IMG/VR virus record: IMGVR_UViG_3300027631_000035
Location: 1 to 47,554 of that record
DNA from: a virus
Reading direction: 5' to 3' (one strand)
Length of the DNA stretch: 47,554 bases
In this document: positions 1,214 through 32,881 of the stretch, piece by piece
Layout: the number at the start of each line of letters is the position of its first letter
Numbering within the stretch: the stretch's first letter is position 1
Program-made: the position numbers and the translations under genes
Notes under the pieces: model-generated
Database searches by the model: none
Seen by the model: the letters and a program-made list of their open reading frames with translations, nothing else
Told to the model about the DNA's origin: nothing

Positions 1214-1245
1214 TTATAACCTATTTTGTATGTAATATACAATGG

Positions 1246-13084: not shown

Positions 13085-13330
13085 TTATTCGTGAATATTT
13101 TTAAATTCGCCTGTTTTTAAATTTAAAGCGACTTCACCATATTTTTCTTGTAACTCAATTCCAATTTTAGAACAATTTTCTTCTAAAACTTGTAATTCTT
13201 GGATTAATTTATTTTTTTTATTTTTTAAACATTGTAACTCATATTCTAAATTACCAAGTTGATTTTTTAAATTTTCTCGTTGGTTATTTAGTTGATTTAA
13301 TAAATGTAACTCTTCAGGGGTTAAAAACAT
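13085..13330 (-). CDS. Small coiled-coil protein (81 aa)
   Basis: A protein of 81 residues from ATG 13330 (MFLTPEELHLLNQL...). It is almost wholly a Leu/Asn/Gln/Lys/Glu heptad coil (LNNQRENLKNQLGNLEYEL, then KNKKNKLIQELQVLEEN). No domain is recognised. A GTG six bases upstream (13336) is an alternative start, but it leaves only two bases between it and the octamer TATTTATA (13339-13346); ATG is preferred. It lies between the glycosyltransferase block and the sheath gene. It may be an assembly factor or a partner that oligomerises; nothing more can be said. Confidence 0.65.
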   Translation of the reverse strand: MFLTPEELHLLNQLNNQRENLKNQLGNLEYELQCLKNKKNKLIQELQVLEENCSKIGIELQEKYGEVALNLKTGEFKNIHE

Positions 13331-13338
13331 ATTCACGA

Positions 13339-13357: not shown

Positions 13358-14557
13358 TTAAATATTAAGAAGTTTGTTAAGAGATTCAATTATTTGAGAA
13401 GGTTTAATAGTTTTTGTACACTCAAATTGACGTGGTGTATCTTTATGATCAGGACACCATTCCCAATCACCCGGATTTAACCATTCTCTATTAAAACATC
13501 CATTACATACATTAGTATCATAGTTAAATATACGTTCACAATCAAGAAACTCACTATATGGTAAACTAAATCCTGAGATTAGTATTACAGGTGTACCTAT
13601 AGACCATGCTAACCAAGATAACCCACTACCAACACCTATAAAAGCATCAGCGTGTTTAATATCTACCATTCTATCTTCAATCGGATAATTACCTGTTTTA
13701 TTAATTACTCCTTTTAATTTACCTCCTAATTTTGAATCATGCCATTTATCACCTAATTTTTCTTGGGTGATTATTACTACTTTATATCCTTTTGCATTTA
13801 AATAATCAATTACTGTTTGCCATCCGCCTGGGTAATTCCAATATTTAGCATGTGCTGAAGCGTGAGGTGCAATAACAACATATTTACCATGAATTTGTCT
13901 TCCCTTATTAGGAACATTAATTTTTGGTTTAGTTTCTACATAAGATAATCCTAATACAGATGTTGATGTTTCTCCTAATGGATGTTGTTTAAAATCAATT
14001 GGGATTTTTAAATTATTTATAGTTCTATCTTCATTATAAAACCAACCAATATTGTACATAGCATATAAATCATGTACTTCAGTACCTGGGGTAACAAATT
14101 CTAATTCAGGGTATTCTTTTTCAAACCATTCATTGTGAAATGTTGAACATATTACATGACATTTATGAACTTTTCTAAATTCATCTATAAACGGAAACCA
14201 AGCTAAGGTATCACCTAATGCTGAGGACTCTAAATGAATATAAACTCTTTTTTCTCTAGCATTAAAATCATGTTCGAATACTAATTCATCATTTTCTTTA
14301 TCGTAAACTTCAATTCTCCAATTAATGAAATATTCAATACCTGGTTTGGTCCACATATTGTTAGTAATCTCTGCTTCATATACTAATTCATCTTTAGATT
14401 TATTAAAAAATTTAGCTACATATGTTTTAGAGTTAGAACCTATAATTTCTAAAAATGCTCCTTTTAAAAAATTAAACTTAAATGTATTATTATTTTCCTT
14501 ATTTGGAATGTTTAATTGGGGGGTGTTATTATACTCCTTAATCAATATTTCTTTCAT
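13358..14557 (-). CDS. TibC/AAH-like protein O-heptosyltransferase (GT9-related)
   Basis: A 399-residue protein matching the autotransporter strand-loop-strand O-heptosyltransferase family (TibC, AAH). The core contains GDTLAWFPFIDEF (about 115-127), a PGGWQTVIDYL segment, and GVGSGLSWLAWSIGTPVILI-type nucleotide-sugar site followed by SGFSLPYSEF. The C-terminus holds four cysteines at 351, 354, 368 and 380 in the spacing C-x2-C-x13-C-x11-C, close to the iron-binding cysteines known in TibC. Family enzymes add heptose from ADP-heptose to Ser in adhesin repeats in the cytoplasm. A 100-residue N-terminal beta-rich region precedes the GT-B fold. The start overlaps the upstream GT gene by 20 nt. 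Target here is inferred to be the giant Ser/Thr-repeat fibre; the sugar donor is unknown. Confidence 0.85.
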   Translation of the reverse strand: MKEILIKEYNNTPQLNIPNKENNNTFKFNFLKGAFLEIIGSNSKTYVAKFFNKSKDELVYEAEITNNMWTKPGIEYFINWRIEVYDKENDELVFEHDFNAREKRVYIHLESSALGDTLAWFPFIDEFRKVHKCHVICSTFHNEWFEKEYPELEFVTPGTEVHDLYAMYNIGWFYNEDRTINNLKIPIDFKQHPLGETSTSVLGLSYVETKPKINVPNKGRQIHGKYVVIAPHASAHAKYWNYPGGWQTVIDYLNAKGYKVVIITQEKLGDKWHDSKLGGKLKGVINKTGNYPIEDRMVDIKHADAFIGVGSGLSWLAWSIGTPVILISGFSLPYSEFLDCERIFNYDTNVCNGCFNREWLNPGDWEWCPDHKDTPRQFECTKTIKPSQIIESLNKLLNI

Positions 14558-15488
14558 ATACTTTAATTAATTCTTTAGAACGGTTAAACCATGATAATTC
14601 TTGAGATGTTACTACTAATTTATCTCTATATAATGACCAATTACTTAATATATCTTTTAAACCTCTATCCATTTCAAATACATCACGTGGAGATCTCCAA
14701 GCACCGTGAAAATCTGTTTCAATTTCCCAGTTAGCAATAAGAGGTAAACCAGCAGCTGCTGCTTCAATCATTGTTAAATTAGGATGTCCAGCTTCTAAAA
14801 TAGTTGGGTGTATAAAAATATCGTGGGTGTGATATAATTCCAATAATTTACTATTAGGAGTATCAAAAACCAAGTTTAGTTTAGGGTAACCTAACATCCA
14901 CAGGTGTCCATTAAAAAATCTTTTATTATCTGAAGGGCCTGCTATTGTAATTTCTAAATTATTAAGCATTGCTAACCCTAACCCTAAAGCAAAACCTTTT
15001 CTATCAAATGTAGGATCTCCACCTAAACCATTATTAGCTATCATTAATAGTTTTGGATTAGCAGGAGTATTTTTTTGTTTTGGATATAATTCATTTGTGT
15101 TAACACCATGAGAGAAATAAACACATTTATCACTTTCAAAGTAGTCAACTAAAAATCTAGCAGGCATTAAAGATATAAGTGAACCTTCAATTGCTTGGAG
15201 GTTTTCTTTATAAACATGAGAATCCTTACCATAAAAGAAAGCATGATGGTCGTGTAATTGGTAAACATATGGTATACCTCTTTCTGCTAATTGAATTGCT
15301 AGATTAGCTACGTGACAATGAACTATATCATATTCTCCAGGATTAATTTGACCTGACATTTTAATATCTACTTCATGTCCTAATTCTTTTAGATTTTGGG
15401 TAAATTCCCAAACAATTTTTTCAATAGCTCCCCATGCTGGAGGTGGGATTGGAATACCACAACCCGGATCGACTTGACAGATTTTCAT
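14538..15488 (-). CDS. GT4-family glycosyltransferase
   Basis: A 316-residue GT-B type glycosyltransferase. The N-terminal domain begins MKICQVDPGCGIPIPPPAWG and has an EKIVWEFTQNLKELGHEV helix and the YDIVHCHVANLA segment. The C-terminal domain has SHGVNTNELYP, then the acceptor-side EAGHPNLTMIEAAAAGLPLI, containing the family's E-x7-E-like arrangement. It resembles GDP/UDP-sugar retaining transferases. The start shares one base with the stop of the upstream multi-domain GT (TAATG), and its end overlaps the O-heptosyltransferase-like gene by 20 nt, so all three are made together. Donor and acceptor cannot be told from sequence. Its partners suggest glycan extension on a protein or on a phage/host polysaccharide. 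Confidence 0.85.
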   Translation of the reverse strand: MKICQVDPGCGIPIPPPAWGAIEKIVWEFTQNLKELGHEVDIKMSGQINPGEYDIVHCHVANLAIQLAERGIPYVYQLHDHHAFFYGKDSHVYKENLQAIEGSLISLMPARFLVDYFESDKCVYFSHGVNTNELYPKQKNTPANPKLLMIANNGLGGDPTFDRKGFALGLGLAMLNNLEITIAGPSDNKRFFNGHLWMLGYPKLNLVFDTPNSKLLELYHTHDIFIHPTILEAGHPNLTMIEAAAAGLPLIANWEIETDFHGAWRSPRDVFEMDRGLKDILSNWSLYRDKLVVTSQELSWFNRSKELIKVYERNID

Positions 15489-18145
15489 TATGTTGTAAAT
15501 ATTAAAGGGTTATCGGTTGAAGCATCTTTAACAGTTTGTTCTATAATACTATAACCTGGGAGATGTTTTGTATAAATTTTTTCGGCTGTTCCTATTTTTA
15601 ATTTAGCAACATTACACATCCATAAATCAATAGCATCCCAAGTCATAGTTTCTAATAATGTTTTAATTTTTTTAGTTTTAATATTATTAATTAAATATGA
15701 TTGTGCTGGGATAAAAGGGGTTACATTTGTATAAATGTCATCAATTTTAGGTCCATTTAAATTTCTATCTTGCCATGGATTTCCAAATCCAATAACATCC
15801 ATATCTGTTTGATATGATAATTTATTAAATCGAATTAAAGATTCATATAACTCTTGATAATCACTATCTACTATAACATCGCCTTCTACGATTAATACAA
15901 AATCATAGTCTGTATTATCCTCAGCGCATATAGCATTTTTATGAGCTAAATAACAACCATAATGTCCAGGAGCTAATTTATAATAACCAGGTACTTCTTG
16001 AATTTCGTGTGGACGTGCACATGTTTCTTTAGGTGGAAGCCCTTTCCATATTTCATTAACTCGTTGTTCGTATAATATACCTGTTTTTTTACAGAAATCT
16101 TTAATATTATCTATTGAACGGATTTCTTTTTCATTAGTTTCAGGTTCAGTAACTAAATGCATTAATTTAATTTTAGGTAAATGATTTTTTACTTCAATAC
16201 TTCCATTAAATTCTAAATTTGTTACCTGGATTGTGGTGATTTTTAGGATTTTATGGTAATTACTTATAGTAAATACTACCTCCATTCCTTCTTCGTATGG
16301 AAGGATTTTATAATAATCTGTTTTACCCTCTATGTTTAATTCATCAAAGAATACTTCGTTTTTATCCTTATCAAGTACTTTAATTTGAATTAATCTTGAT
16401 TCTTTACTATTAGAAATTCTAATATAAGGAGCAAATGTGTTAGGAATATTAGTAGATAGTACAGTGTAATATTCTACTTGGGAAAAATCAGAATGATCAA
16501 AAGTTTCTATACTTTTTTGATTAAATATTTCAATATCTTCAAAATAAATTTGATCTGAACTTCGTTTAAATATATGATGCCACATATTTTCTAAACCATT
16601 ACTTTCACTTCCTAATTGGAAACGTAAATGTTCATAATCTTCAGTATTAAATACTTGGTGAACATGATCTAAAAAGAAATCTGAGTTGGAAGCATAAAAA
16701 TAAGTATGTAAAGCATCACCTTCTGATGCTCTATATTTACCAAAGTATGCTTTTTTATTATCTAATATTTCAGATACTTCATTAATATGTTTTGTATTTT
16801 GAATAGTGTAATCAAAATTGATAAAGAATAATTTTTTATATCCTAAATTTTTAGCTAAAGCAGCACCGTTTACATAATTTGAATAAACACTAGGGCCATG
16901 ATATAAATCATTATCATTTCCTCTTAAATTAATATGGACTTTATGATCAGGAAGATCAGCCCAATAATTACAATAATATGAATGTTTAGTTAAAATATTA
17001 TTGTTATCAACAACAACATAATCTGCTTTTGCTTCTATAGCAAATGGAACAGGAATATGTGATGTAACTAATACTTTTGTTCCTCTAGCATGAATTGAAT
17101 CAATTGTTTTTAATGTAGTTTCAACTATAGTATCACTTATTGGGAAAGTTGATAATATAAAAATTTCTTCATTTAAATTAGATTCTTTAACACCTAATTT
17201 TTCAGCAATTTTATTACAATTAATTTTAAAATCATCAAACTTTAAATAATTAATAGTTTTAAATTTATCAAAATAATTTAAATAAACTGGGAGATTATAT
17301 ATTAATGTAGGGATTTGATTTGAAATGGCCTCACGAATAACTAATGGCATTGTTTCTTTATCATTATCATGTCCACGAGAGGTAAACAAGAATAAATCCA
17401 TTGCCTGATAGAATTTATCAACGTCTGTACGTTCGTTCCACCATGTTAAATTTGGGGGAGTGTTTTGAGCTAATGGTTCCCAATACCATTTAAAATTATC
17501 TGCTCGGTTTCCTAAACTATGAAATTCCACATCAGGAAATTGTTTAGCATATTCAAAAAATTCAGCTTGATTTTTACGAGATGTATATAATCCAACATGT
17601 AAAACGTGTTTTTTAGCGGGATCTAATTGTAGATTACGCAATGCCTCTTCACGGTCAGGACGTTCTATATATTCAATAGGATATTCGACTAATACGCTAG
17701 GAACGTTAATATCTTTATATTGATTTATTTGCCATTGAGATACAAACATGAATTTATCAGGAAAGAAACGTTTATCTTCTGTGTTATAAGAAGAATCATG
17801 TGACGTTTCTATAATGATATAACTTCTATCTTGTTTATAAATTTGTTTGGCTACTTCTTCATCCATAAAAAACTCAGGAATTTCTTCCAAATGGATAATA
17901 TCAGGTTGGACTTGATTAATAATATCAATCAGTTCTATTTTATTTTCTTCTAATGTAAAGAATTTATCCGGATCAATAAGGTTTTGGATTTTATTTTTTG
18001 TAACTACAAGAATACCTCCAGTACAATCAACCCATTCTACAAGATAAATTTCAAATTCATCTTTAAGTAATTCAATTTTTTTAGTTAAATATTGAGGGAG
18101 TCCGCCAGTTGATAGATGCGGTGCAACATATAACAATTTTTTCAT
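15488..18145 (-). CDS. Multi-domain glycosyltransferase (GT4-like, middle domain, GT25-like)
   Basis: An 885-residue protein with three parts. Residues about 1-310 are GT4-like: start KKLLYVAPHLSTGGLPQYL, PDIIHLEEIPEFF, VLHVGLYTSRKNQ, and the acceptor-site segment MPLVIREAISNQIPTLIYN. About 325-650 is a region with no clear family: it begins EEIFILSTFPISD and includes a VEYYTVLSTN start of a likely beta-sandwich. About 658-885 is GT25-like: YYKLAPGHYGCYLAHKNAI, then FVLIVEGDVIVD in the place of the family's acidic donor-metal motif, then YLINNIKTKKI. GT25 includes LPS and collagen galactosyltransferases. The gene heads the GT block, 14 nt after an octamer variant (18160-18167). Activities are inferred. 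Confidence 0.8.
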   Translation of the reverse strand: MKKLLYVAPHLSTGGLPQYLTKKIELLKDEFEIYLVEWVDCTGGILVVTKNKIQNLIDPDKFFTLEENKIELIDIINQVQPDIIHLEEIPEFFMDEEVAKQIYKQDRSYIIIETSHDSSYNTEDKRFFPDKFMFVSQWQINQYKDINVPSVLVEYPIEYIERPDREEALRNLQLDPAKKHVLHVGLYTSRKNQAEFFEYAKQFPDVEFHSLGNRADNFKWYWEPLAQNTPPNLTWWNERTDVDKFYQAMDLFLFTSRGHDNDKETMPLVIREAISNQIPTLIYNLPVYLNYFDKFKTINYLKFDDFKINCNKIAEKLGVKESNLNEEIFILSTFPISDTIVETTLKTIDSIHARGTKVLVTSHIPVPFAIEAKADYVVVDNNNILTKHSYYCNYWADLPDHKVHINLRGNDNDLYHGPSVYSNYVNGAALAKNLGYKKLFFINFDYTIQNTKHINEVSEILDNKKAYFGKYRASEGDALHTYFYASNSDFFLDHVHQVFNTEDYEHLRFQLGSESNGLENMWHHIFKRSSDQIYFEDIEIFNQKSIETFDHSDFSQVEYYTVLSTNIPNTFAPYIRISNSKESRLIQIKVLDKDKNEVFFDELNIEGKTDYYKILPYEEGMEVVFTISNYHKILKITTIQVTNLEFNGSIEVKNHLPKIKLMHLVTEPETNEKEIRSIDNIKDFCKKTGILYEQRVNEIWKGLPPKETCARPHEIQEVPGYYKLAPGHYGCYLAHKNAICAEDNTDYDFVLIVEGDVIVDSDYQELYESLIRFNKLSYQTDMDVIGFGNPWQDRNLNGPKIDDIYTNVTPFIPAQSYLINNIKTKKIKTLLETMTWDAIDLWMCNVAKLKIGTAEKIYTKHLPGYSIIEQTVKDASTDNPLIFTT

Positions 18146-18159
18146 AATAACTTATTTCC

Positions 18160-18167
18160 AATAAATA
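18160..18167 (-). promoter_or_regulatory. Putative late promoter octamer variant, glycosyltransferase block
   Basis: TATTTATT (one mismatch) 14 nt before the ATG at 18145, in the context GTATATTTATTGG. It would start the three-gene glycosyltransferase unit. Confidence 0.45.
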
Positions 18168-18194
18168 TACTAAAGAAAATTTAAAGTTCCAAAC

Positions 18195-18893
18195 TTAGCT
18201 CATAGTAACATCCCAAAGTGAACCTGTTTTATTTGCTAATGGTGAATTAAGAGCTATTGTTGCAGTGCCATAAGTTGTTGAGTCATAAGTATTACCTCCA
18301 TTATTTACCGTTGCACTTGTAAAAAATGGACTACCATTAATAAAAAAATTTGCAGTTACAGCTCCTGCAAGACCAGGGTATGAAGGAGATGTTTGGATGT
18401 CTAAAACCCAATAATAAGTGTTTATTAGTGGGGTAATAGTATCTTGCTGTATGTCAGCTCCAAAAGTAGGGAAAAATGGAGCTAGGGAGAATCCTCCAGC
18501 AGCATATATATATGTTAATGAACTATCGTAAAGGGTTAATCTAATATTAAAATCATAACAATCTGGTGGGTCTGGGGGCATTATGGGAGAAGGACCACTA
18601 TAGGCACCATTAACAGTTATTAATCTATCATAATTACTATCATAAAAATAATTTAATCCTGAAAAATCACTTACTTTTATATTTGTAGTTTTTGCAGTAG
18701 TAAGATATATTCTATTTGCTCCTGATCCTTCACCTTGTCCCCAATTATTATCAGGTTGATTACCAGAACCATTTAGACCTGTAAAATATGAAAAAAAACT
18801 CATAGTATTTAAGCTAAGGATACCTGTAGAATAAGCACCATTAGCTTCACTCCATATATCACTAAAATTTATACTTGAAGTTGGAACTGCCAT
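18195..18893 (-). CDS. Tail-fibre-associated structural protein (232 aa)
   Basis: A 232-residue protein rich in Ser, Thr, Tyr, Asn and Gly, predicted beta, with no signal peptide. The N-terminal SINFSDIWSEANG is reminiscent of the short 'isls-i-e-g' leaders found on many phage fibre proteins. A Pro cluster (PIMPPDPPD) sits about residue 105. It starts two bases after the stop of the giant fibre gene and is therefore co-transcribed with it. It could be a fibre tip, an adhesin or a fibre attachment piece; no fold family is recognised. Confidence 0.6.
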   Translation of the reverse strand: MAVPTSSINFSDIWSEANGAYSTGILSLNTMSFFSYFTGLNGSGNQPDNNWGQGEGSGANRIYLTTAKTTNIKVSDFSGLNYFYDSNYDRLITVNGAYSGPSPIMPPDPPDCYDFNIRLTLYDSSLTYIYAAGGFSLAPFFPTFGADIQQDTITPLINTYYWVLDIQTSPSYPGLAGAVTANFFINGSPFFTSATVNNGGNTYDSTTYGTATIALNSPLANKTGSLWDVTMS

Positions 18894-18895
18894 TT

Positions 18896-24800: not shown

Positions 24801-27800
24801 GCTGAACCATTAGATCCTGATGAACCTGATGTTCCACTTAAAGCTGAAGCTCCTGAGTTACCAGCTACTCCGTTTGAACCTGAACTACCACTTGAACCTG
24901 TAGAACCACTTGTTCCTGATAATGCACTAGCACCTGATGTACCAGCATTTCCTGTTGAACCGTTTGTTCCAGTTGAACCTGATGTACCTGATGTTTGACT
25001 TAATCCTGAATTACCAGCAACACCCGCTGAACCTGAAGTTCCGGTTGAACCACTAGTTCCACTTGAACCTGCAGTACCACTTGTTGCACTTGCACCTGAA
25101 GTACCTGCGTTTCCTGATACTCCATTTGAACCATTTGAACCTGATGAACCACTAGTACCACTTAATGCTGAAGCACCTGAGTTACCTGCGTTACCTGAAG
25201 AACCGTTTGTTCCAGTAGATCCTGAGGTACCTGATGTTTGACTTAATCCGCTATTTCCAGCAGCACCTGCTGAGCCACTAGTTCCTGATGAACCTGTTGA
25301 ACCTGAAGTACCGCTTAAAGCACTTGCTCCACTATTTCCAGCGTTACCATTTGAACCATTTGAACCAGTTGAACCTGAAGTTCCTGAGGTAAAGCTTAAA
25401 CCACTGTTTCCAGCATTACCTGCTGAACCTGAAGTTCCTGTTGAACCTGAGGTTCCTGAACTTCCTGCTGTACCGCTTGTAGCACTTGCACCACTTAATC
25501 CAGCAGCACCTGATGAACCTGAAGAACCTGATGAACCAGTTGAACCTGAAGTTCCGCTTAATGCTGAAGCTCCTGAGTTACCTGCATTACCACTTGAACC
25601 ATTTGAACCTGTAGAACCGCTAGTTCCTGAGGTTTGGCTTAAACCACTGTTTCCTGCGGCTCCTGCTGAACCTGAGGTTCCTGTTGAACCGCTTGTTCCG
25701 GAAGTTGCACTTGCTCCACTATTTCCAGCATTTCCTGAGGTACCATTAGTACCAGTTGAACCACTAGTACCGCTTGATCCTGCTGTTCCTGATGTTGTTG
25801 AAGCACCTGAAGTACCTGCAGCTCCTGTACTACCATTAGTTCCTGATGAACCGGAAGTTCCTGATAATTGACTTAAACCATTAGTTCCAACAGCACCTGA
25901 TGTACCTGCTGAACCTGAAGAACCTGAAGTACCAGAGGCTTGACTTAAACCATTAGTTCCTGCATTTCCTGAGGAACCTACTGTTCCTGATGAGCCACTT
26001 GTTCCACTAGTAGCACTTAAAGCACTTAATCCAGCAATTCCTGCTGAACCTGAAGTACCATTTGAACCTGTAGAACCACTTGTTCCACTTAATGCACTTG
26101 CACCTGAGTTTCCAGCATTTCCACTTGATCCGTTTGAACCAGTAGAACCACTAGTACCACTTAATGCACTTATACCTGATGTACCTGCATTACCACTAGA
26201 ACCATTAGTTCCTGTAGAGCCACTTGTTCCACTTGTGTTGCTTAAACCGCTATTTCCAGCATTACCCGCTGAACCATTTGTACCGGTTGAACCTGAAGTA
26301 CCACTTGTATTTGATAAACCTGAGTTACCTGCAGCTCCTGCAGAACCACTAGTTCCTGTTGAACCTGAAGTTCCTGCTGAACCTGATGTATTTGAAGCAC
26401 CTGATGTGCCTGCATTTCCTGATGAACCTACGGTTCCTGATGAACCACTAGTACCTGATGTAGCACTTAATGCACTTGCACCTGCCGCTCCTGCTGAACC
26501 TGAAGTTCCAGTTGAACCACTTGTACCACTTGTATTACTTAATCCGCTATTACCTGCGACACCATTTGAACCTGAAGAACCTGATGAACCCGTTGAACCT
26601 GAAGTACTGCTTAATGCTGAAGCTCCAGCTATTCCTGCTGAACCTGAGGTTCCTGAAGAACCTGTAGAACCACTTGTTCCACTTAAAGCACTTGCTCCTG
26701 AAGTACCTGCTGCACCTGAAGATCCATTTGAACCTGTTGATCCTGAAGTACCACTTGTAGCACTTAATCCACTATTTCCAGATGCGCCTGCAGAACCTGA
26801 GGTTCCTGAAGAACCTGTTGAACCTGAGGTACCACTTAAAGCACTTAAACCTGATGTACCTGCTACACCTGAAGATCCATTTGAACCTGTTGATCCTGAT
26901 GAACCTGAAAGTGAGCTATTTCCACTAGATCCTGCTATACCTGAAGAACCTGTAGTTCCTGTTGAACCTGATGTTCCTGAAGTTGAGGATGATCCGCTTT
27001 GACCTGATGCACCCGCAGATCCTGTTGTTCCTGAACTACCAGTTGTGCCTGAAGTTGCGCTAATAGCTGAAGCTCCGGCTACTCCTGCTGAACCTGATGT
27101 TCCTGAAGAACCTGTTGAACCTGAAGTTCCTGAAAGTGCTGAAGCACCTTGTGAACCTGCTATACCTGATGAACCATTTGTACCAGTTGAACCACTAGTG
27201 CCACTTAAAGCACTTGCTCCTGAGGTACCTGCAACTCCTGAGGATCCATTTGAACCTGTAGAACCACTTGTTCCTGATGTTTGACTTAATCCACTATTTC
27301 CTGCGGCTCCTGCGGAACCTGATGTTCCTGAAGAACCTGTTGTACCTGAGGTAGAGCTTAATCCGCTATTTCCAGCCGCACCTGCTGAACCACTAGTTCC
27401 ACTTGAACCTGTTGAACCTGAAGTACCACTTAAGGCACTTGATCCTGAGGTACCAGTATTACCTGAAGTACCATTAGAACCAGTAGAACCTGAAGTTCCT
27501 GAAAGGGCTGAGACTCCACTTGAACCAACTGCTCCACTAGATCCATTTGAACCTGTTGAACCACTTGTTCCACTTGTAGCACTTGCACCTGAATTACCTG
27601 CAATTCCTGATGAACCATTTGTACCAGTTGAACCACTTGTTCCTGATGAACCAGCAGTACCTGATGTAACACTAGCACCTGATGTACCTGCAATACCTGT
27701 TGAACCGTTAGTTCCTGATGAACCGGAAGTTCCCGATAATTGACTTAAACCGTTAGTTCCAGCAGCACCTGTTGTACCTGCTGAACCTGAAGAACCTGAA

Positions 27801-30800
27801 GTTCCACTTATATTTGAAGCACCATTATTACCTGCATTTCCACTTGATCCATTTGAACCTGTAGAACCGCTTGAACCTGATGCGTTACTTGCTCCTGATG
27901 TTCCAGCATTACCTGTTGAACCATTAGTACCACTTGAACCGGATGTTCCTGAAGTAGTACTTAAACCACTATTACCTGAGGCACCTGAAGTACCGTTAGT
28001 ACCTGTTGAACCACTTGTTCCTGAACTTCCTGCTGTGCCTGAAGTAGATGAAGCGCCACTTGTACCTGCAATTCCTGTAGCGCCATTTGAACCATTAGAT
28101 CCAGATGAACCTGAAGTTCCACTTAATGCTGAAGCCCCACTGTTACCTGCTGCACCTACTGAACCTGAAGTACCACTTGAACCAGTTGAACCACTTGTGC
28201 CACTTAATGCACTTGCTCCGTTATTTCCAGCAGCCCCGTTTGAACCATTTGAACCTGAAGATCCTGAAGTACCTGATAATGCACTTGAGCCACTATTTCC
28301 AGCATTACCTGAAGTACCGTTTGTACCTGTTGAACCTGAAGTTCCTGATGAACCTGCGGTTCCTGAGGTTGTACTAGCACCTGAAGTACCTGCAGCACCT
28401 GTTGAACCATTTGTTCCTGAAGAACCTGAGGTACCTGATAATTGGCTAGCACCATTTGTACCAGCATTACCTGTTGAACCATTTGTTCCTGAAGAACCTG
28501 ATGTGCCACTTAATGCACTTAATCCGCTATTACCTGCAGCACCTGCAGAACCATTTGAACCACTTGAACCTGTAGAACCACTAGTACCACTTAATGCGCT
28601 AGCACCACTGTTTCCAGCATTACCTGAAGAACCATTAGTACCTGTTGAACCGCTTGATCCTGAACTTCTGCTTAAACCACTAGTTCCTGTGTCCCCATCT
28701 CCTGAAGTACCGTTTGTACCTGTTGAACCACTTGTACCTGAAGTTCTGCTAAGGCCTGATGTTCCTATATTTCCTGAGGTACCTACAGAACCTGATGATC
28801 CTGAAGTACCTGATGTTTGACTTAATCCTGAGTCACCAGCAGCACCTGCTGAACCTGAAGTTCCTGTTGAACCTGAGGTTCCACTATTTCCTGAAGAGCC
28901 AGCTGTTCCTGAAGTTTGACTTGCACCTGAAGTACCTGCTGCTCCTGTAGAACCATTAGTTCCTGTAGAACCTGAAGTACCTGATGATGCACTTGCCCCA
29001 TTGCTTCCAGCGTTACCTGTTGAACCATTTGTACCCGTTGAACCTGAAGTGCCTGATGTAGCGCTTAAACCGCTATTTCCAGCAGCACCTGCTGAACCTG
29101 AAGTGCCACTAGAACCAGTTGAACCTGAAGTTCCACTTAAAGCACTTGTTCCATTTGAACCAGCAGCACCTGAAGAACCGTTAGTACCAGTTGAACCTGA
29201 TGTTCCACTTAATGCTGAAGCTCCTGAAGAACCTGCTATTCCTGATGACCCATTTGAACCTGTAGAACCTGAAGTACCTGCTGTAGCACTTAAACCACTG
29301 TTACCGGCTGCACCTGCTGAACCATTAGATCCGGATGAACCAGTTGAACCTGAAGTACCTGAAAGTGCTGAAGCTCCATTATTTCCAGCATTACCTGAAG
29401 TACCGTTTGTACCTGAACTGCCTGAGGTACCGCTTAATTCACTTGCTCCTGATGAACCTGCTATACCTGAAGAACCATTTGAACCTGTAGAACCTGAAGT
29501 TCCACTTATATTTGAAATACCACTATTTCCAGCAGCACCGTTTGTACCATTTGAACCTGTAGAACCACTTGTTCCACTTAATGCACTTGCTCCGCTATTT
29601 CCAGCGTTTCCACTTGAACCTGAAGTTCCAGTTGAACCCGCTGTACCACTTGTATTACTATCACCTGATGTACCTGCGACTCCAGTTGAACCATTAGATC
29701 CTGTTGAACCGCTTGTACCAGCTGTTGCACTTAAACCACTATTTCCAGCAATACCTGCTGAACCTGAGGTGCCATTTGAACCTGTAGAACCACTAGTACC
29801 TGATAAGGCACTTGCACCGGAGTTTCCAGCATTTCCACTTGATCCGTTTGAACCAGTAGAACCACTAGAACCTGCTGTATTACTTGCTCCGCTTGTTCCT
29901 GCATTTCCAGTTGAACCATTTGTACCTGTTGAACCTGAAGTACCTGAAGTTGAACTTAAACCTGATTGACCTGCAAAACCTGCTGAACCTGAAGTTCCTG
30001 AAGAACCAGTTGAACCACTTGTTCCGCTTTCTGCACTTAATCCATTTGTTCCTGCTATACCTGTAGATCCATTTGAACCTGCAGAACCACTAGTTCCACT
30101 TAATGCGCTAGTACCTTGTGAACCTGCTAAGCCACTAGATCCGTTTGAACCAGTTGAACCGCTAGTACTACTAAGAGCACTTGTTCCATTACTACCTATA
30201 TTTCCTGAAGTACCATTAGATCCTGTTGAACCTGATGTACCACTTAATGCACTTAAACCTGATGTACCTTCAATACCTGAAGTACCATTTGAACCTGTAG
30301 ATCCTGATGTACTACTTAATGCTGAAACACCTGCAATACCTGCTGAACCTGAAGTTCCTGAAGATCCTGTAGTACCTGAAGTGTTGCTTAAACCACTACC
30401 TCCAGCAACACCTGTGGAACCACTTGTTCCTGATGAACCAGTAGAACCACTTGTTCCTGATAATGTACTTAAACCATTTGTACCAATAACACCACTTGAA
30501 CCATTAGATCCACTTGAACCTGAAGTCCCACTTTCTGCACTTAAACCACTAGTTCCTGTAATACCTGAGGAACCATTTGAACCTGATGTTCCTGAAGTAG
30601 CGCTAAGAGCTGATGATCCTGCTACACCTGCTGAACCAACTGTTCCTGATGAACCCGTTGTTCCTGAGGTAGCACTTAATGCTGAAACACCGGCAGCACC
30701 TGATGAACCTGAAGTTCCTGAGGAACCTGTAGAGCCGCTTGTTCCACTTTCTGCACTAGTACCTTGTGAACCATTTAATCCACTAGATCCATTAGATCCG

Positions 30801-32881
30801 GTTGAACCTGAAGTGCCACTTATATTACTTAAACCACTGTTTCCAGCAGCACCATTTGAACCTGATGAACCTGATGAACCTGTAGAACCACTTGTTCCAC
30901 TTAAAGCACTAGCTCCACTATTTCCTGCGTTACCACTTGAACCATTTGTTCCAGTTGAACCACTTGAACCTGCTGTTGAACTTGCTCCACTTACTCCTGC
31001 ATTTCCACTTGAACCATTAGTACCTGTTGAACCACTTGTTCCTGAAGTAGCACTCAACCCACTATTTCCATCTACACCATTTGAACCTGATGAACCAGTT
31101 GAACCACTTGTTCCACTTAATGCTGAGGATCCATTATTACCTATATTTCCGGAGGTTCCGTTTGAACCAGTTGAACCACTAGTGCCACTTAATGCACTTA
31201 ATCCACTATTTCCTGCAGCTCCTGATGAACCTGATGAACCACTTGAACCTGTAGAACCTGAAGTACTACTTAATGCGCTTGCTCCTCCTGAACCTGCATT
31301 ACCTGTTGAACCTGAAGTACCTGTTGAACCTGAAGTACCTGAGGTAGAACTTCCTCCGCTATTTCCAGCATTACCTGCTGAACCATTTGTTCCCGTAGAA
31401 CCACTTGTTCCACTTGTATTACTTAATCCGCTATTACCTGCGGCACCTGATGTACCGTTTGAACCTGAAGTACCTGAAGTACCACTTAAAGCTGATGAAC
31501 CATTATTTCCAGCATTTCCTGATGAACCAGTAGTACCTGATGAACCAGCAGTACCTGATGTTTGGCTTAAACCTGATGCACCTGCAACACCTGAAGTTCC
31601 ATTAGAACCACTTGTTCCTGATGTACCTGCTTCTTGACTAAGTCCATTTGTACCAATAACTCCTGAAGTTCCATTAGAACCGCTTGTTCCTGATGTACCT
31701 GAAAGAGCTGAAGATCCAGCATTACCATTAGCACCACTACTTCCTGAAGTACCTGTTGAACCACTTGTAGCACTAGCACCTGAGGATCCAGCATTACCTG
31801 AAGTTGCATTATTACCTGAAGTACCTGAAGTACCTGTTGTATTACTTGAACCTGAAGTTCCAGCATTACCTGAAGTTGCATTATTACCTGAAGTACCTGA
31901 AGTACCTGTTGTTCCTGAATTTCCATTAGTACCAGCAACACCTGATGTGCCGTTTGTACCTGAAGTGCCTGATGTACCTGAAGTTTGACTTAATCCACTA
32001 TTACCGGCAACACCTGAAGTTCCATTAGTACCATTTATTCCACTTGTTCCTGAAGAACCCGTTGAACCTGATAATCCGTTTGTACCTGAAGTACCGTTTA
32101 TTCCATTAGCTCCACTAGTTCCTGAAGAACCTGTTGAACCTGATAATCCGTTTGTACCGTTTGTACCGTTTGTACCGTTATCACCTGAGGTACCTGAAAA
32201 ACCCGTTGAACCTGATAATCCGTTTGTGCCGTTTGTACCATTTGTTCCATTAGCTCCACTAGTTCCTGATGAACCTGTTGAACCTGAGTTCCCGTTTGTG
32301 CCTGAGGTACCATTTGTTCCATTAACACCTGAGGTACCTGAAGAACCAGTTGAACCTGAATTTCCGTTTGTGCCGTTTGTACCATTTGTTCCATTAGCTC
32401 CACTAGTTCCTGATGAACCTGTTGAACCTGATAATCCATTTGTGCCTGATGTGCCTGATGTGCCTGATGTACCAGCAACACCTGCTGTTCCATTCGAACC
32501 ATTAACACCACTTGTACCTGAACTTGAATTTACATATCCTACTAATCCTGTAGTTGGATTATATGTTACTACATATGGGCCAGCTTGTACTGGTAAAGTT
32601 TGTAGTATAAGAGGTTGTGAAGATCCGGAAATTACTAGCGAACCAGTAATTACAGCTGAACCTGAAAAAGGAAATCCTACACTTGATGCGGAAACATATA
32701 CGGTTACACCAGTTGTATCAAATGTTGTTAATGCAACTGAACCGGAAAAGTTTAAAAAAGGAACACTAGAACTAACTAATGTACCATTTTGGTAAATATC
32801 AATAGTACCACCACCGGTATTATTAGGATCTACGTTATATACGCCTACGGGAACTTGGTCTAGGAATCTTACTTGAGCCAT
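18896..32881 (-). CDS. Giant collagen-like tail fibre with S74 chaperone domain
   Basis: A 4661-residue protein. Residues 1-121 form a beta-rich head (MAQVRFLDQVPVGVYNVDPN...) that likely attaches to the virion. Residues 122-4499 are Gly-X-Y triplets, X/Y mostly Ser, Thr, Asn and Ala, with only one Pro noticed. In the central part a triplet without Gly (ALS, ATS, QTS, NTS) recurs about every 8-11 triplets; N- and C-terminal zones have fewer. Residues 4500-4565 hold a beta segment with LGVGTTSPSYPLHVSG. From Ser4566 the last 96 residues are a peptidase S74 (intramolecular chaperone) domain. It begins SDRRVKGDI, includes RHAGVIAQEV, and ends in a coiled coil. S74 domains trimerise fibres and cut themselves off before that Ser. 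The octamer TATTTATA is 18 nt upstream. The trimeric collagen-like rod is inferred. Confidence 0.9.
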   Translation of the reverse strand: MAQVRFLDQVPVGVYNVDPNNTGGGTIDIYQNGTLVSSSVPFLNFSGSVALTTFDTTGVTVYVSASSVGFPFSGSAVITGSLVISGSSQPLILQTLPVQAGPYVVTYNPTTGLVGYVNSSSGTSGVNGSNGTAGVAGTSGTSGTSGTNGLSGSTGSSGTSGANGTNGTNGTNGNSGSTGSSGTSGVNGTNGTSGTNGNSGSTGSSGTSGANGTNGTNGTNGLSGSTGFSGTSGDNGTNGTNGTNGLSGSTGSSGTSGANGINGTSGTNGLSGSTGSSGTSGINGTNGTSGVAGNSGLSQTSGTSGTSGTNGTSGVAGTNGNSGTTGTSGTSGNNATSGNAGTSGSSNTTGTSGTSGNNATSGNAGSSGASATSGSTGTSGSSGANGNAGSSALSGTSGTSGSNGTSGVIGTNGLSQEAGTSGTSGSNGTSGVAGASGLSQTSGTAGSSGTTGSSGNAGNNGSSALSGTSGTSGSNGTSGAAGNSGLSNTSGTSGSTGTNGSAGNAGNSGGSSTSGTSGSTGTSGSTGNAGSGGASALSSTSGSTGSSGSSGSSGAAGNSGLSALSGTSGSTGSNGTSGNIGNNGSSALSGTSGSTGSSGSNGVDGNSGLSATSGTSGSTGTNGSSGNAGVSGASSTAGSSGSTGTNGSSGNAGNSGASALSGTSGSTGSSGSSGSNGAAGNSGLSNISGTSGSTGSNGSSGLNGSQGTSAESGTSGSTGSSGTSGSSGAAGVSALSATSGTTGSSGTVGSAGVAGSSALSATSGTSGSNGSSGITGTSGLSAESGTSGSSGSNGSSGVIGTNGLSTLSGTSGSTGSSGTSGSTGVAGGSGLSNTSGTTGSSGTSGSAGIAGVSALSSTSGSTGSNGTSGIEGTSGLSALSGTSGSTGSNGTSGNIGSNGTSALSSTSGSTGSNGSSGLAGSQGTSALSGTSGSAGSNGSTGIAGTNGLSAESGTSGSTGSSGTSGSAGFAGQSGLSSTSGTSGSTGTNGSTGNAGTSGASNTAGSSGSTGSNGSSGNAGNSGASALSGTSGSTGSNGTSGSAGIAGNSGLSATAGTSGSTGSNGSTGVAGTSGDSNTSGTAGSTGTSGSSGNAGNSGASALSGTSGSTGSNGTNGAAGNSGISNISGTSGSTGSNGSSGIAGSSGASELSGTSGSSGTNGTSGNAGNNGASALSGTSGSTGSSGSNGSAGAAGNSGLSATAGTSGSTGSNGSSGIAGSSGASALSGTSGSTGTNGSSGAAGSNGTSALSGTSGSTGSSGTSGSAGAAGNSGLSATSGTSGSTGTNGSTGNAGSNGASASSGTSGSTGTNGSTGAAGTSGASQTSGTAGSSGNSGTSGSTGTSGSAGAAGDSGLSQTSGTSGSSGSVGTSGNIGTSGLSRTSGTSGSTGTNGTSGDGDTGTSGLSRSSGSSGSTGTNGSSGNAGNSGASALSGTSGSTGSSGSNGSAGAAGNSGLSALSGTSGSSGTNGSTGNAGTNGASQLSGTSGSSGTNGSTGAAGTSGASTTSGTAGSSGTSGSTGTNGTSGNAGNSGSSALSGTSGSSGSNGSNGAAGNNGASALSGTSGSTGSSGTSGSVGAAGNSGASALSGTSGSSGSNGSNGATGIAGTSGASSTSGTAGSSGTSGSTGTNGTSGASGNSGLSTTSGTSGSSGTNGSTGNAGTSGASNASGSSGSTGSNGSSGNAGNNGASNISGTSGSSGSAGTTGAAGTNGLSQLSGTSGSSGTNGSTGIAGTSGASVTSGTAGSSGTSGSTGTNGSSGIAGNSGASATSGTSGSTGSNGSSGAVGSSGVSALSGTSGSTGSNGTSGNTGTSGSSALSGTSGSTGSSGTSGSAGAAGNSGLSSTSGTTGSSGTSGSAGAAGNSGLSQTSGTSGSTGSNGSSGVAGTSGASALSGTSGSTGTNGSSGIAGSQGASALSGTSGSTGSSGTSGSAGVAGASAISATSGTTGSSGTTGSAGASGQSGSSSTSGTSGSTGTTGSSGIAGSSGNSSLSGSSGSTGSNGSSGVAGTSGLSALSGTSGSTGSSGTSGSAGASGNSGLSATSGTSGSTGSNGSSGAAGTSGASALSGTSGSTGSSGTSGSAGIAGASALSSTSGSTGSSGSSGSNGVAGNSGLSNTSGTSGSTGTSGSAGAAGASALSATSGTSGSSGTVGSSGNAGTSGASNTSGSAGTSGSTGTSGSAGAAGNSGLSNTSGTSGSTGTNGSAGNAGNSGLSNTSGTSGSTGTNGSSGNAGTSGISALSGTSGSTGSNGSSGNAGNSGASALSGTSGSTGSNGTSGSAGIAGLSALSATSGTSGSSGTVGSSGNAGTNGLSQASGTSGSSGSAGTSGAVGTNGLSQLSGTSGSSGTNGSTGAAGTSGASTTSGTAGSSGTSGSTGTNGTSGNAGNSGASATSGTSGSTGTSGSAGAAGNSGLSQTSGTSGSTGSNGSSGNAGNSGASALSGTSGSTGSSGSSGSSGAAGLSGASATSGTAGSSGTSGSTGTSGSAGNAGNSGLSFTSGTSGSTGSNGSNGNAGNSGASALSGTSGSTGSSGTSGSAGAAGNSGLSQTSGTSGSTGTNGSSGNAGNSGASALSGTSGSSGSNGSNGVSGNAGTSGASATSGTAGSSGTSGSTGTSGSAGVAGNSGLSQTSGTSGSTGTNGSTGNAGTSGASALSGTSGSTGSSGSSGSNGVAGNSGASALSGTSGSSGSNGSAGAAGNSGLSATSGTSGSTGTNGSTGNAGNSGASALSGTSGSSGSNGSNGATGNAGTSGASATSGTSGSTGTNGSAGVAGNSGLSQTSGTAGSSGTSGTSGNNGTSGLSSTSGSAGSSGSNGSSGADGTSGLSRTSGTSGSTGTNGSSGNAGNSGASALSGTSGSTGSSGTSGSAGVAGNSGLSATSGTSGSTGTSGSSGAAGLSGASATSGTSGSTGSNGSSGAAGTSGASSTSGTAGSSGTSGSTGTSGSSGASGVAGTSGASATSGTSGSAGTGGSSGISGASGISAVSGTSGSSGSNGSSGNTGSNGASALSGTSGSTGSNGSSGNTGNSGASALSGTSGSTGSSGTNGSAGVAGVSALSATSGTTGSSGTNGSTGVAGASALSATSGTSGSTGTNGSSGNAGNSGASALSGTSGSSGSTGSNGAAGASGTSNISGTSGTTGSNGSNGNAGVAGNSGLSATSGTTGSSGTTGSAGIAGNSGASALSGTSGSSGSAGSNGAAGANGTSNISGTSGSTGTNGSSGNAGNSGASALSGTSGSTGSSGTNGSAGVTGNSGASAASGTSGSSGSNGSNGATGANGTSGASATSGTSGSTGTNGSSGNAGNSGASALSGTSGSTGSNGSNGAAGANGTSNISGTSGTTGSAGSSGNAGAAGNSGLSSTSGTSGSTGTNGSSGAAGNSGLSAISGTSGTTGSNGSNGAAGANGTSNVSGTSGSTGSAGSNGNAGIAGNSGLSATSGTSGSTGTNGSSGNAGNSGASALSGTSGTTGSSGTNGSAGVAGNSGLSALSGTSGTSGSNGSNGAAGNSGASALSGTSGSTGSSGTNGSNGISGNSGASAASGTSGSSGSNGSNGATGANGTSGASATSGTSGSTGTNGSTGAAGNSGLSQTSGTSGSTGSNGTSGAIGTSGASQTSGTAGSSGTSGSTGTNGTSGAAGNSGLSQTSGTSGSTGTNGSNGNAGNSGASALSGTSGSTGSNGSNGAAGNSGTSNISGTSGSTGSTGSNGAAGASGTSNVSGTSGTTGSNGSNGNAGVAGNSGLSATSGTSGSTGSSGTTGAAATSGQSTQSAVSGSSGSSGTSGSAGAAGNNGASAASGTSGSSGTTGSNGAAGANGTSNISGTSGTTGSNGSSGNAGAAGNSGLSATSGTSGSTGTNGSAGNAGNSGASSVSGTSGTTGSNGSSGGAAVAGVSTISATSGSSGSNGTNGAAGNSGTSNISGTSGTTGSNGTSGNAGAAGNSGLSATSGTSGSTGTNGSSGNAGNSGASAVSGTSGTSGSNGSNGAAGANGTSNVSGTSGTTGSNGTSGNAGAAGNSGLSATSGTSGSTGSNGSNGAAGNSGNSALSGTSGSTGTSGSSGNNGAAGNSGNSAASGTTGSSGTNGSNGATGNSGNSGNSGVSGTTGSNGTSGNNGASGNSGNSGTNGTSGSNGNSGNSGNSGTNGTTGSNGTSGNNGNAGNSGLSGLSGTTGSNGSSGNNGGAGASGVSAASGTSGSTGSNGSSGNNGAAGNSGNSALSGTTGSSGTNGSNGVAGNSGNSALSGTTGSNGTSGNNGNNGASGNSGNSGTNGTTGSNGTSGAAGNSGNSGLSGTNGTTGSNGNNGAAGNSGNSGLSGTSGSNGTSGAAGNSGNSGLSGTNGTSGSNGNNGGAGASGISGASGTSGSNGSSGNNGNAGASGNSGLSGTNGTTGSNGTSGAAGNSGNSGLSGTNGTSGSAGNNGGAGPSGVSGASGTSGSNGSSGNNGNAGASGVSAVSGTTGTSGSNGNSGNNGASGANGTSGVNGSNGTTGASGTSGQSINGTSGISGGVFTNQPDYLVRTTSTTTVQSVSFLYADMTNSRLGVGTTSPSYPLHVSGNVSGVSIYASNDIQAFSDRRVKGDIQIIEDAINKINQINGVTFTRLDDKENYKGRHAGVIAQEVELILPEVVNTDAITGMKSVAYGNLNALLIEAIKELSKKVKDLEDKLNK
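18899..19186 (-). other. Peptidase S74 / intramolecular chaperone domain of the fibre
   Basis: This stretch encodes the last 96 residues of the fibre protein. It starts at the Ser of SDRRVK; the Ser and Lys correspond to the catalytic pair of endosialidase-type autoproteases. GRHAGVIAQEVELILPEV and YGNLNALLIEAIKEL follow, both typical of the family. In known members the domain trimerises, folds the preceding beta structure and is then released by cleavage before the Ser. Confidence 0.9.
19385..32518 (-). repeat. Gly-X-Y coding repeat tract of the giant fibre gene
   Basis: About 13.1 kb of degenerate tandem repeats encoding about 1,460 triplets. The basic unit is 9 bp. Longer units of about 24-33 residues (72-99 bp) recur, for example GTSGSTGSNGSSGNAGNSG followed by a Gly-free triplet. 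Near the N-terminal end a 33-residue unit (GSTGSSGTSGANG-type) is repeated several times. A register break (GDGDTG) occurs near 28690-28705 and a double Gly-free step near 21575-21600. Synonymous codons vary between copies, so it is not a simple recent microsatellite expansion. Confidence 0.9.

What the first reader, a model, noticed from the sequence alone, without database searches (positions are those of the whole stretch)
13358..32881. Candidate phage-encoded protein O-glycosylation system for a giant fibre
Seen: a fibre gene with about 1,460 Ser/Thr/Asn-rich Gly-X-Y triplets is followed, after one small gene, by three tightly coupled glycosyltransferase genes. The last is a TibC/AAH-type O-heptosyltransferase with its Cys4 motif. 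Known: BAHT enzymes modify Ser in repeated adhesin segments in the cytoplasm of the bacterium. Also known: galactosylated Thr in the Y position stabilises collagen-like helices in some worm cuticle collagens, and BclA-type bacterial collagens are O-glycosylated. Inference: the phage builds a sugar-coated, repetitive fibre, with the enzymes initiating (TibC-like) and extending (GT4, GT25-like) the glycan. It could protect the fibre, mimic host surface glycan or stabilise the rod. I know of no described phage system with this combination.
Basis: partly seen in the sequence, partly recalled or inferred. Interest (0 to 1): 0.9.

Follow-up and report, generated by a model that had tools for sequence, protein, structure and literature searches.

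The report
Phage's own sugar-coating kit for fibres
This virus of bacteria probably carries its own enzymes for attaching sugars to the more than a thousand serines of its giant collagen-like fibre, and the same pairing of enzyme and serine-rich, proline-free fibre turns up in other large phages.

Summary
Gene 13358-14557 is a TibC-family protein O-glycosyltransferase (TIGR04414, 333 bits, cut-off 200; predicted fold TM 0.79 to TibC); catalytic Asp and four cysteines are kept. The 4,661-aa fibre has 1,283 Gly-X-Y triplets, mostly Ser in Y, almost no Pro.

The idea passed tests its author could not run. In relatives, 13 of 13 TibC+ records have a long Gly-X-Y fibre, 13 of 13 complete TibC- intervals do not; the trait switched about five times on the neck tree, the fibre following. 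Of contigs picked only for GTSGTSGTSG DNA, 21 of 50 carry TibC, against 2 of 50 for GPTGPTGPTG (both also have Ser-type runs) and 1 of 28 neutral ones; in length-matched pieces 14 of 120, 0 of 120, 0 of 61. Viral enzymes branch apart from most adhesin-modifying bacterial ones, whose target repeat was not found in the fibre.

Limits: no chemistry is shown; the donor sugar is unknown; one lineage has TibC without a visible Gly-X-Y fibre; size-stratified whole-record controls are thin. Phage virion glycosylation (mycobacteriophages) and viral collagen glycosylation (mimivirus) are known kinds, so this is a new variant.

The parts
18896..32881 (-). Fibre gene, 4,661 aa: N-terminal anchor (about residues 1-121), Pro-free Gly-X-Y shaft with mostly Ser in Y (about 122-4491), C-terminal Peptidase_S74 chaperone
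18195..18893 (-). 232-aa protein of unknown family directly after the fibre; possible fibre-tip or accessory protein (inference)
15488..18145 (-). 885-aa multidomain glycosyltransferase: GT4 domain, a middle GT-A-like domain, beta-strand region, C-terminal GT25-like domain (sub-threshold)
   Evidence: model of low confidence, pLDDT 69
14538..15488 (-). 316-aa GT4-like glycosyltransferase (Pfam below cut-off; PHROG glycosyltransferase)
13358..14557 (-). 399-aa TibC-family (TIGR04414) protein O-glycosyltransferase with iron-finger Cys4
13085..13336 (-). 83-aa gene between the enzymes and the sheath; the same small gene precedes the sheath in TibC+ and TibC- relatives, so it marks the border of the interval and is probably not part of the system
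11304..13028 (-). Tail sheath gene, border of the interval
32918..33874 (-). Conserved gene before the fibre, other border of the interval (called neck here by its place; the name is inferred)

Best explanation
A phage-encoded protein O-glycosylation cassette acts on the phage's own collagen-like fibre. Late in infection the fibre chain is made in the host cytoplasm. The TibC-type enzyme transfers a sugar from a nucleotide sugar of the host to serines in the Y position of GTSG and GNSG stretches (initiation). The GT4-like enzyme and the multidomain GT4/GT-A/GT25-like enzyme lengthen that glycan. The C-terminal S74 chaperone then helps the chains to trimerise, giving a long, sugar-coated, Pro-free shaft. 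Shown here: enzyme family, gene order, shaft composition, co-occurrence and co-switching. Inferred: the transfer reaction, the acceptor serines, the order of enzymes, the trimer. Unknown: the sugar (heptose is possible, not established) and its benefit (helix stability, shielding, or host-glycan mimicry).
For: TIGR04414 333.4 bits against cut-off 200, next family RfaQ 39.6 bits; phmmer to TibC E 6e-60; predicted fold TM 0.79 to TibC, 0.37-0.52 to LPS heptosyltransferases and another GT9. Catalytic Asp (D116) and the four Cys invariant in 24 aligned sequences. Co-occurrence: 13/13 vs 0/13 for records where the interval could be judged; about 5 independent switches, fibre type goes the same way in 4.6 on average, opposite in 0. 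The shaft is swapped while the N-terminal anchor stays: G004 and G015 have the anchor with other shafts and no enzyme gene found. TibC-blind samples: whole records 21/50 vs 2/50 and 1/28; fetched pieces of similar length 14/120 vs 0/120 (p 8e-5) and 0/61. Nearest Ser-type Gly-X-Y within 16 kb of TibC in 14 of 20. TibC modifies Ser and not Thr, at QNSGG and NTSAA in TibA; [NT]S[GA] occurs 416 times in the fibre, 89 per 1,000 aa, and 0-12 per 1,000 in the other 30 window proteins. Shafts beside TibC are Ser-in-Y and Pro-poor; Gly-X-Y shafts of immuto-like relatives with no TibC seen are Thr/Gln-in-Y, most with Pro.
Against: No sugar has been shown on any such fibre. A lineage of which 10 of 15 loci were searched whole (fragments up to 54 kb) has a GT gene and TibC between neck and sheath with no Gly-X-Y gene seen. 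29 of 50 GTS-type records show no TibC, nor any GT9 protein; most are fragments, but three are >=100 kb. By size the whole-record excess is clear only at >=100 kb, with six controls (p 0.002); at 40-100 kb p is 0.09, or 0.25 if the two TibC+ immuto-like records that I had set aside are put back among the controls. Gly-X-Y fibres of other composition occur without TibC in immuto-like phages (12 loci). Thumb-tip residues F265/V266, needed for the active TibC dodecamer, align with Asp-Lys. TIGR04415 was not found in the fibre pieces tested. HldE domain II: 1 weak contig-edge match in 23 records; HldE domain I over cut-off in 1 of 4 bacterial bins, not in the Winogradskyella one; so ADP-heptose supply is unproven.
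Confidence: 0.72

Rival explanations
1. The three enzymes remodel the host's surface glycans (for example O-antigen), as proposed for glycosyltransferases at a like genome position in pelagimyophages, and their neighbourhood to the fibre reflects a shared host-recognition island.
For: Pelagimyophage authors read the glycosyltransferases in the island before the neck gene gp14 as O-chain modifiers (passages); a heptosyltransferase of a huge wastewater phage was read as an LPS enzyme (passages). GT4 and GT25 domains are common in LPS synthesis (recalled).
Against: The TibC family is a protein O-glycosyltransferase family (PMC4358343). The cassette switches with the fibre shaft type on the neck tree and goes with Ser-type, not Pro-type, shafts in TibC-blind samples.
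Confidence: 0.13
2. TibC modifies another virion protein (sheath, baseplate or a different fibre), and the Gly-X-Y shaft is only a frequent companion.
For: One lineage keeps a GT gene and TibC next to the sheath with no Gly-X-Y gene in fragments up to 54 kb; in G095 the Gly-X-Y ORFs seen near TibC are of the Pro type.
Against: In the window no other protein is comparably rich in the known acceptor context; the shaft type switches with the enzyme while sheath and neck stay.
Confidence: 0.1
3. Co-occurrence without function: both gene types are carried in certain large phages and move together in a hot spot.
For: Size and lineage are partly confounded in whole records.
Against: Sister records differ in both traits together (G012 and G015, supported pair); two TibC- relatives with the same fibre anchor have other shafts; the excess holds in length-matched pieces and across diverged viral TibC branches.
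Confidence: 0.05

Closest known systems
TibC / AAH, bacterial autotransporter heptosyltransferases (BAHT), PDB 4RAP and 4RB4
   Same: Same sequence family (TIGR04414) and fold; catalytic Asp, Lys, Arg, Trp and four Cys kept in the window protein.
   Different: No TIGR04415 target found; neighbour is a collagen-like fibre; Pro300 equivalent is Gly, thumb-tip Phe-Val aligns with Asp-Lys; the viral enzymes lie across a supported branch from 18 of 23 bacterial ones.
Virion glycosylation of mycobacteriophages (Freeman et al. 2023)
   Same: Phage-encoded glycosyltransferases thought to decorate virion proteins.
   Different: Capsid protein in what I read; I saw only the description in PMC11256854 (passages), the paper itself is not held.
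Mimivirus L230 lysyl hydroxylase / glucosyltransferase
   Same: A virus enzyme that glycosylates the virus's own low-proline collagen-like proteins in vitro (passages of PMC9614988).
   Different: Acts on hydroxylysine with a domain like human GLT25D1; eukaryotic virus.
BclA and other bacterial collagen-like glycoproteins
   Same: Glycosylated Gly-X-Y proteins (passages of PMC8968730).
   Different: Published averages are Pro in X 19% and Thr in Y 31.6% over bacteria, against almost no Pro and mostly Ser in Y here; enzymes not compared.
Phage tail fibres with collagen-like repeats
   Same: Gly-X-Y shafts.
   Different: The immuto-like relatives have GPT/GxQ shafts; the Ser-type shaft with its own enzyme cassette did not appear in the listings of my searches.

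Membership tests
TIGR04414 TibC/AAH sequence family | Score above the curated cut-off | tested here: met
   333.4 bits, cut-off 200
TIGR04414 TibC/AAH sequence family | TibC fold with N-terminal beta-barrel | tested here: met
   model pLDDT 87.6, strands in residues 24-97, TM 0.79 to 4RAP over its length
TIGR04414 TibC/AAH sequence family | Catalytic Asp110 and sugar-site Lys230, Arg286, Trp305 | tested here: met
   aligned Asp, Lys, Arg and Trp are kept in the window protein; the Arg is not kept in several distant viral relatives
TIGR04414 TibC/AAH sequence family | Cys4 iron finger | tested here: met
   C351, C354, C368, C380 invariant in 24 sequences; iron binding itself not testable
BAHT in the functional sense | Neighbouring autotransporter with strand-loop-strand target repeats (TIGR04415) | tested here: not met
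   no TIGR04415 in a 667-aa fibre piece, the fibre's N- and C-terminal parts or the sheath; the Bradyrhizobium neighbour used as control scores 98.7 bits, cut-off 30, the Lentisphaerae one does not match
BAHT in the functional sense | Hydrophobic thumb tip needed for the dodecamer | tested here: not met
   F265-V266 align with Asp-Lys, next to a three-residue gap, so by alignment only
BAHT in the functional sense | Transfer of heptose from ADP-heptose to Ser | not testable with these tools
   needs enzyme assay
LPS heptosyltransferases (RfaC/F/Q and III) | Score above family cut-offs | tested here: not met
   39.6 of 467, 27.9 of 170.2, 23.7 of 185.3, 12.9 of 134.6 bits
Collagen-like protein (PF01391) | Gly-X-Y repeat over cut-off | tested here: met
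   247 bits, cut-off 27.2, for a 667-aa piece
Collagen-like protein (PF01391) | Triple helix | not testable with these tools
   regular non-Gly triplets about every eighth position leave room for another fold, for example a polyglycine-II-like bundle (inference)
GT25 collagen galactosyltransferases (COLGALT1) | GT25 domain | tested here: inconclusive
   Pfam GT25 19.3 bits, cut-off 24; COLGALT1 is the top Foldseek hit but TM 0.18 on a model of pLDDT 69, and in VIA-align it is tied with many GT-A folds

The most novel reading that the evidence does not exclude
Viruses of bacteria carry a widespread branch of TibC-type enzymes devoted to collagen-like shafts, and glycosylated Ser in Y takes over the stabilising role that Pro and hydroxyproline have in other collagens, so these shafts could lose proline almost altogether (one Pro-bearing triplet of 1,272 in the window's unbroken runs). 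The adhesin-modifying bacterial enzymes would then be one branch of a largely viral family.
Probability: 0.33. Interest if true: 0.9.

Novelty: new variant of a known kind. Interest (0 to 1): 0.78.

Why it matters
It gives a recurrent but uncharacterised class of giant phage fibres a testable biosynthesis: which enzyme acts, on which residue, and what the sugar does. If right, a protein glycosylation family known from bacterial adhesins has a large viral branch with a new substrate class, glycosyltransferases in phage tail regions should not all be read as host-surface modifiers, and Pro-free collagens stabilised by sugar become a testable natural design.

Tried and rejected
Rejected: LPS heptosyltransferase; a chance pairing. 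DNA glycosylation was not pursued: the families do not point to it and the TibC family acts on protein.

A first impression that L335/L422 (TibC without Gly-X-Y) is an exception was dropped: its contig begins inside an SSGTSGNSG-type ORF. The two TibC+ records of the GPT control also hold Ser-type runs about 5 kb from TibC, but I leave the control count at 2 of 50. The one TibC+ neutral record (G173) has TibC near its contig edge and no Ser-type pattern in 67 kb.

Led nowhere: tblastn for the repeat in cultured phages gave no match, probably because of the low-complexity filter; profile search of the 885-aa enzyme in the PDB; a phage-encoded ADP-heptose gene; HldE in 4 bacterial bins; the fold of the 885-aa enzyme as a whole. 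One search was a throw-away pattern used to learn what record the window is. One search (worm collagen) gave only a listing.

Rows dropped before counts. Of the 50 records (chosen for length among the loci, plus immuto), 24 were left out of the 13/13 comparison: 11 without TibC, 10 of them with Gly-X-Y, whose interval is cut or (G029) unclear; G035 and G037 with TibC and Gly-X-Y but no neck gene; 11 with TibC, whole or partial, and cut upstream, one of them with Gly-X-Y. TibC+ rows were judged from neck to TibC, TibC- rows from neck to sheath. G031 has three ORFs of 12-15 Gly-X-Y triplets in its interval; I counted it as without a long fibre. In the tree I used 11 of the 80 loci and 11 of the 17, counted L291 (Thr/Gln-type Gly-X-Y) as without Ser-type, and L422 as with it although its run lies elsewhere on the contig. 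brought in 120 stretches, of which 80 were printed: I sent the 50 at >=30 kb among those; 19 more of >=30 kb among the 40 unprinted ones were not searched whole. One search likewise: 50 of 120, chosen by length from the 80 printed, one of 14.3 kb overlooked. From 61 loci I sent the 28 at >=20 kb. The 22 immuto-like contigs were chosen after setting aside L335 and L336, known to have TibC; with them it is 2 of 24, and the excess over all 52 such controls has p 1.4e-5. One search repeats the test on all 120, 120 and 61 fetched pieces; among the 40 and 40 pieces not sent before it is 6 and 0. In the distance table G009 was counted as a miss although its near twin G006 has the fibre about 4 kb away; G080 was entered as 4.7 kb and is 5.7 kb, without effect on the count within 10 kb. 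The 40-100 kb control count has 8 immuto-like records; the recount is 7.

Full report
What is there. The window is a viral record of 47,554 bases. The genes of the structural block that I translated lie on the minus strand. Capsid and sheath are closest among isolates to Flavobacterium phage immuto (52-53% identity), then Microcystis phage Mel-JY01; a Winogradskyella genome bin holds a contig with the same order (Gly-X-Y ORF, three enzymes, sheath; TibC 60% identical). So a T4-like phage of Bacteroidota is likely; the host is inferred.

The fibre. 4,661 aa. An N-terminal part of about 121 residues is followed by 1,283 Gly triplets and 170 in-register triplets with another residue at the Gly position, then an S74 chaperone. 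Y is Ser in 669 of 1,272 triplets of unbroken runs, X is mostly Ser, Thr, Asn or Ala, and Pro occurs once. Of the spacings between non-Gly triplets 95 are exactly eight, and 105 of the 170 have Ala. Seven of the relatives tried share the spacing; L492 and L515, from other TibC+ records, have unbroken shafts.

The enzymes. The last gene is a TibC-family protein by curated score, by comparison with the sequence of the solved structure and by predicted fold. In the eLife paper on TibC (PMC4358343; outline and three of four parts of the results read) D110, K230, R286 and W305 and the four Cys are needed for activity, and TibC modifies Ser, not Thr. All are kept here. P300, which sets the stereoselectivity for the sugar, is Gly, and the thumb tip F265-V266 aligns with Asp-Lys, so I assume neither the same sugar nor the TibC ring. 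The two other enzymes are a GT4-like protein and an 885-aa protein with GT4, GT-A-like and GT25-like parts. That COLGALT1 heads the Foldseek list is suggestive only: the model is poor and many GT-A folds tie.

Co-occurrence in the lineage. Using the neck-like gene and the sheath as borders, 26 of the 50 records can be judged. With TibC: G001, G002, G003, G006, G009, G012, G013, G016, G017, G030, G032, G033, G034, all 13 with a Gly-X-Y fibre. Without: G004, G005, G015, G019, G020, G021, G022, G027, G028, G031, G036, G042 and immuto, none of 13 with a Gly-X-Y ORF of more than 15 triplets in the interval (G031 has three ORFs of 12-15 triplets, and G021 five collagen matches elsewhere in its 269 kb). 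Fisher p for 13/0 against 0/12 (immuto left out) is 2e-7, but relatives are not independent. On the neck tree of 48 rows, which includes the exceptional lineage, TibC needs at least 6 changes and Ser-type Gly-X-Y 5; in five independent supported pairs the fibre type goes with the enzyme in 4.6 on average and never the other way, sign test median p 0.0625, the least that five pairs can give. In G004 and G015 the same fibre anchor (MAQVRFLDQVP type) carries a different shaft, in G004 SHAEG repeats, and no enzyme gene was found. Shaft and enzymes thus seem to move as a unit.

TibC-blind test. I collected viral contigs only by DNA for GTSGTSGTSG. TIGR04414 over the cut-off occurs in 21 of 50 records of >=30 kb, and in 11 of 14 of >=100 kb. 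Controls: 2 of 50 for GPTGPTGPTG (1 of 29 at >=30 kb), 1 of 28 for an arbitrary 16-mer, 0 of 22 immuto-like contigs (2 of 24 with the two that I had set aside). Fisher p: 7e-6 against GPT, 1.6e-4 against GPT at >=30 kb, 1.4e-5 against the other 52. By size: >=100 kb 11/14 against 0/6, p 0.002; 40-100 kb 5/21 against 2/37, p 0.09, or 4/39, p 0.25. So size and lineage explain part. To remove size I asked which fetched pieces (up to 15 kb, about 1 Mb for each of the two Gly-X-Y sets) hold TibC: 14 of 120 GTS, 0 of 120 GPT, 0 of 61 neutral; p 8e-5 and 0.003. Of 20 positive records measured, 14 have Ser-type Gly-X-Y within 16 kb of TibC, 13 of these within 8 kb; in records of >=80 kb, 8 of 14 lie within 10 kb where 14% is expected, p 1.7e-4. 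Not near: G069, G078, G088, G103, G105, and G095, whose near Gly-X-Y ORFs are of the Pro type. Among phage records in INPHARED, 4 of 50,697 match the window enzyme.

Substrate type. Ser-type shafts of the TibC+ group have 0-1.4% Pro and 49-76% Ser in Y (some records carry further GPQ-type fibres, and G034 a short ORF with 2.8% Pro); immuto-like phages with no TibC seen have Thr and Gln in Y, and Pro up to 48% (five of the twelve were searched whole). Published averages for bacterial collagens are Pro in X and Thr in Y (passages). TIGR04415, the target repeat of bacterial relatives, is found beside the Bradyrhizobium TibC and not in the fibre pieces, nor beside the one Lentisphaerae TibC tried. 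In the TibC tree (quick method, midpoint root) 18 bacterial rows are split by a branch of 99% SH-aLRT from 47 rows: 38 viral, 5 from bacterial bins and 4 doubtful. Of these nine bin contigs, L358, L360, L361, L363, L364 and L403 carry Ser-type Gly-X-Y ORFs (15-156 triplets); L359 has a mixed one; L362 and L411 none. Among the other 55 bacterial loci none has a Ser-type Gly-X-Y ORF of 20 or more triplets.

Against. Ten records of one lineage have neck, GT, TibC, small gene, sheath with no fibre between and no collagen match in the fragments. 29 of 50 GTS-type records have neither TibC nor any GT9 protein. Donor sugar supply was not established. Nothing here measures chemistry.

What is known. 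Phage-encoded GTs and glycans on capsid proteins are described for mycobacteriophages (read only as cited in PMC11256854, passages). Mimivirus L230 hydroxylates and glucosylates viral collagen peptides (passages of PMC9614988). Glycosyltransferases near the neck in pelagimyophages were read as O-antigen modifiers (passages of PMC7029224), and a heptosyltransferase of a huge phage as an LPS enzyme (passages of PMC10747093). Searches (top listings seen) showed no paper on a TibC-type enzyme with a phage collagen-like fibre in the held open-access library; most papers of subscription journals are missing there.

Verdict. It is a new variant: known kinds of enzyme and of fibre in a combination that recurs in large phages.

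Noticed in passing
window 18896-32881: Ala (or Asn, Gln, Ser) stands at the Gly place about every eighth triplet (24 residues), in 95 of the spacings exactly eight; shared with several close relatives, absent from some other TibC+ phages. Hinges, or a fold other than a plain collagen helix.
   Followed up: partly
L081:4750-8430 and L081:2-3052: Microcystis phage Mel-JY01 has one 1,226-aa protein with GT-like parts and a C-terminal TibC domain, 1.7 kb after an ORF with 202 Gly-X-Y triplets (Ser in 134 Y positions), most of which the record annotates as genes on the other strand.
   Followed up: partly
L788 (G094:78000-97999): A phage whose TibC frame has seven in-frame TGA codons, suggesting TGA recoding, still has GTSGTSG DNA about 0.7 kb from TibC and Ser-type Gly-X-Y ORFs beyond.
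   Followed up: no
L424-L438: A lineage with neck, GT, TibC, small gene and sheath in a row and no fibre gene between; its TibC substrate is unknown. One member (G060) has long Ser-rich repetitive ORFs (EYDGSSW type) elsewhere.
   Followed up: partly
L271-L273 (G034, G037): A Ser-type fibre ORF is followed by three ORFs with Pro, Tyr and Gln (GPQ, GYQ), so one phage can hold two kinds of collagen-like shaft.
   Followed up: no
L173:7297-8403: A relative with the same fibre anchor has a short shaft of SHAEG-type repeats instead of Gly-X-Y.
   Followed up: partly
window 18195-18893: A 232-aa protein of no known family directly after the fibre, found in part of the relatives; candidate tip protein.
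   Followed up: no
L358: A contig binned as Winogradskyella looks like a phage contig (Gly-X-Y ORF, GT genes, TibC, sheath); it points to Flavobacteriaceae as hosts.
   Followed up: partly
L357 (G032:1-216): A weak HldE domain II-like match (34.5 bits, cut-off 181.5) at a contig edge of a TibC+ phage; a possible sugar-nucleotide gene.
   Followed up: no
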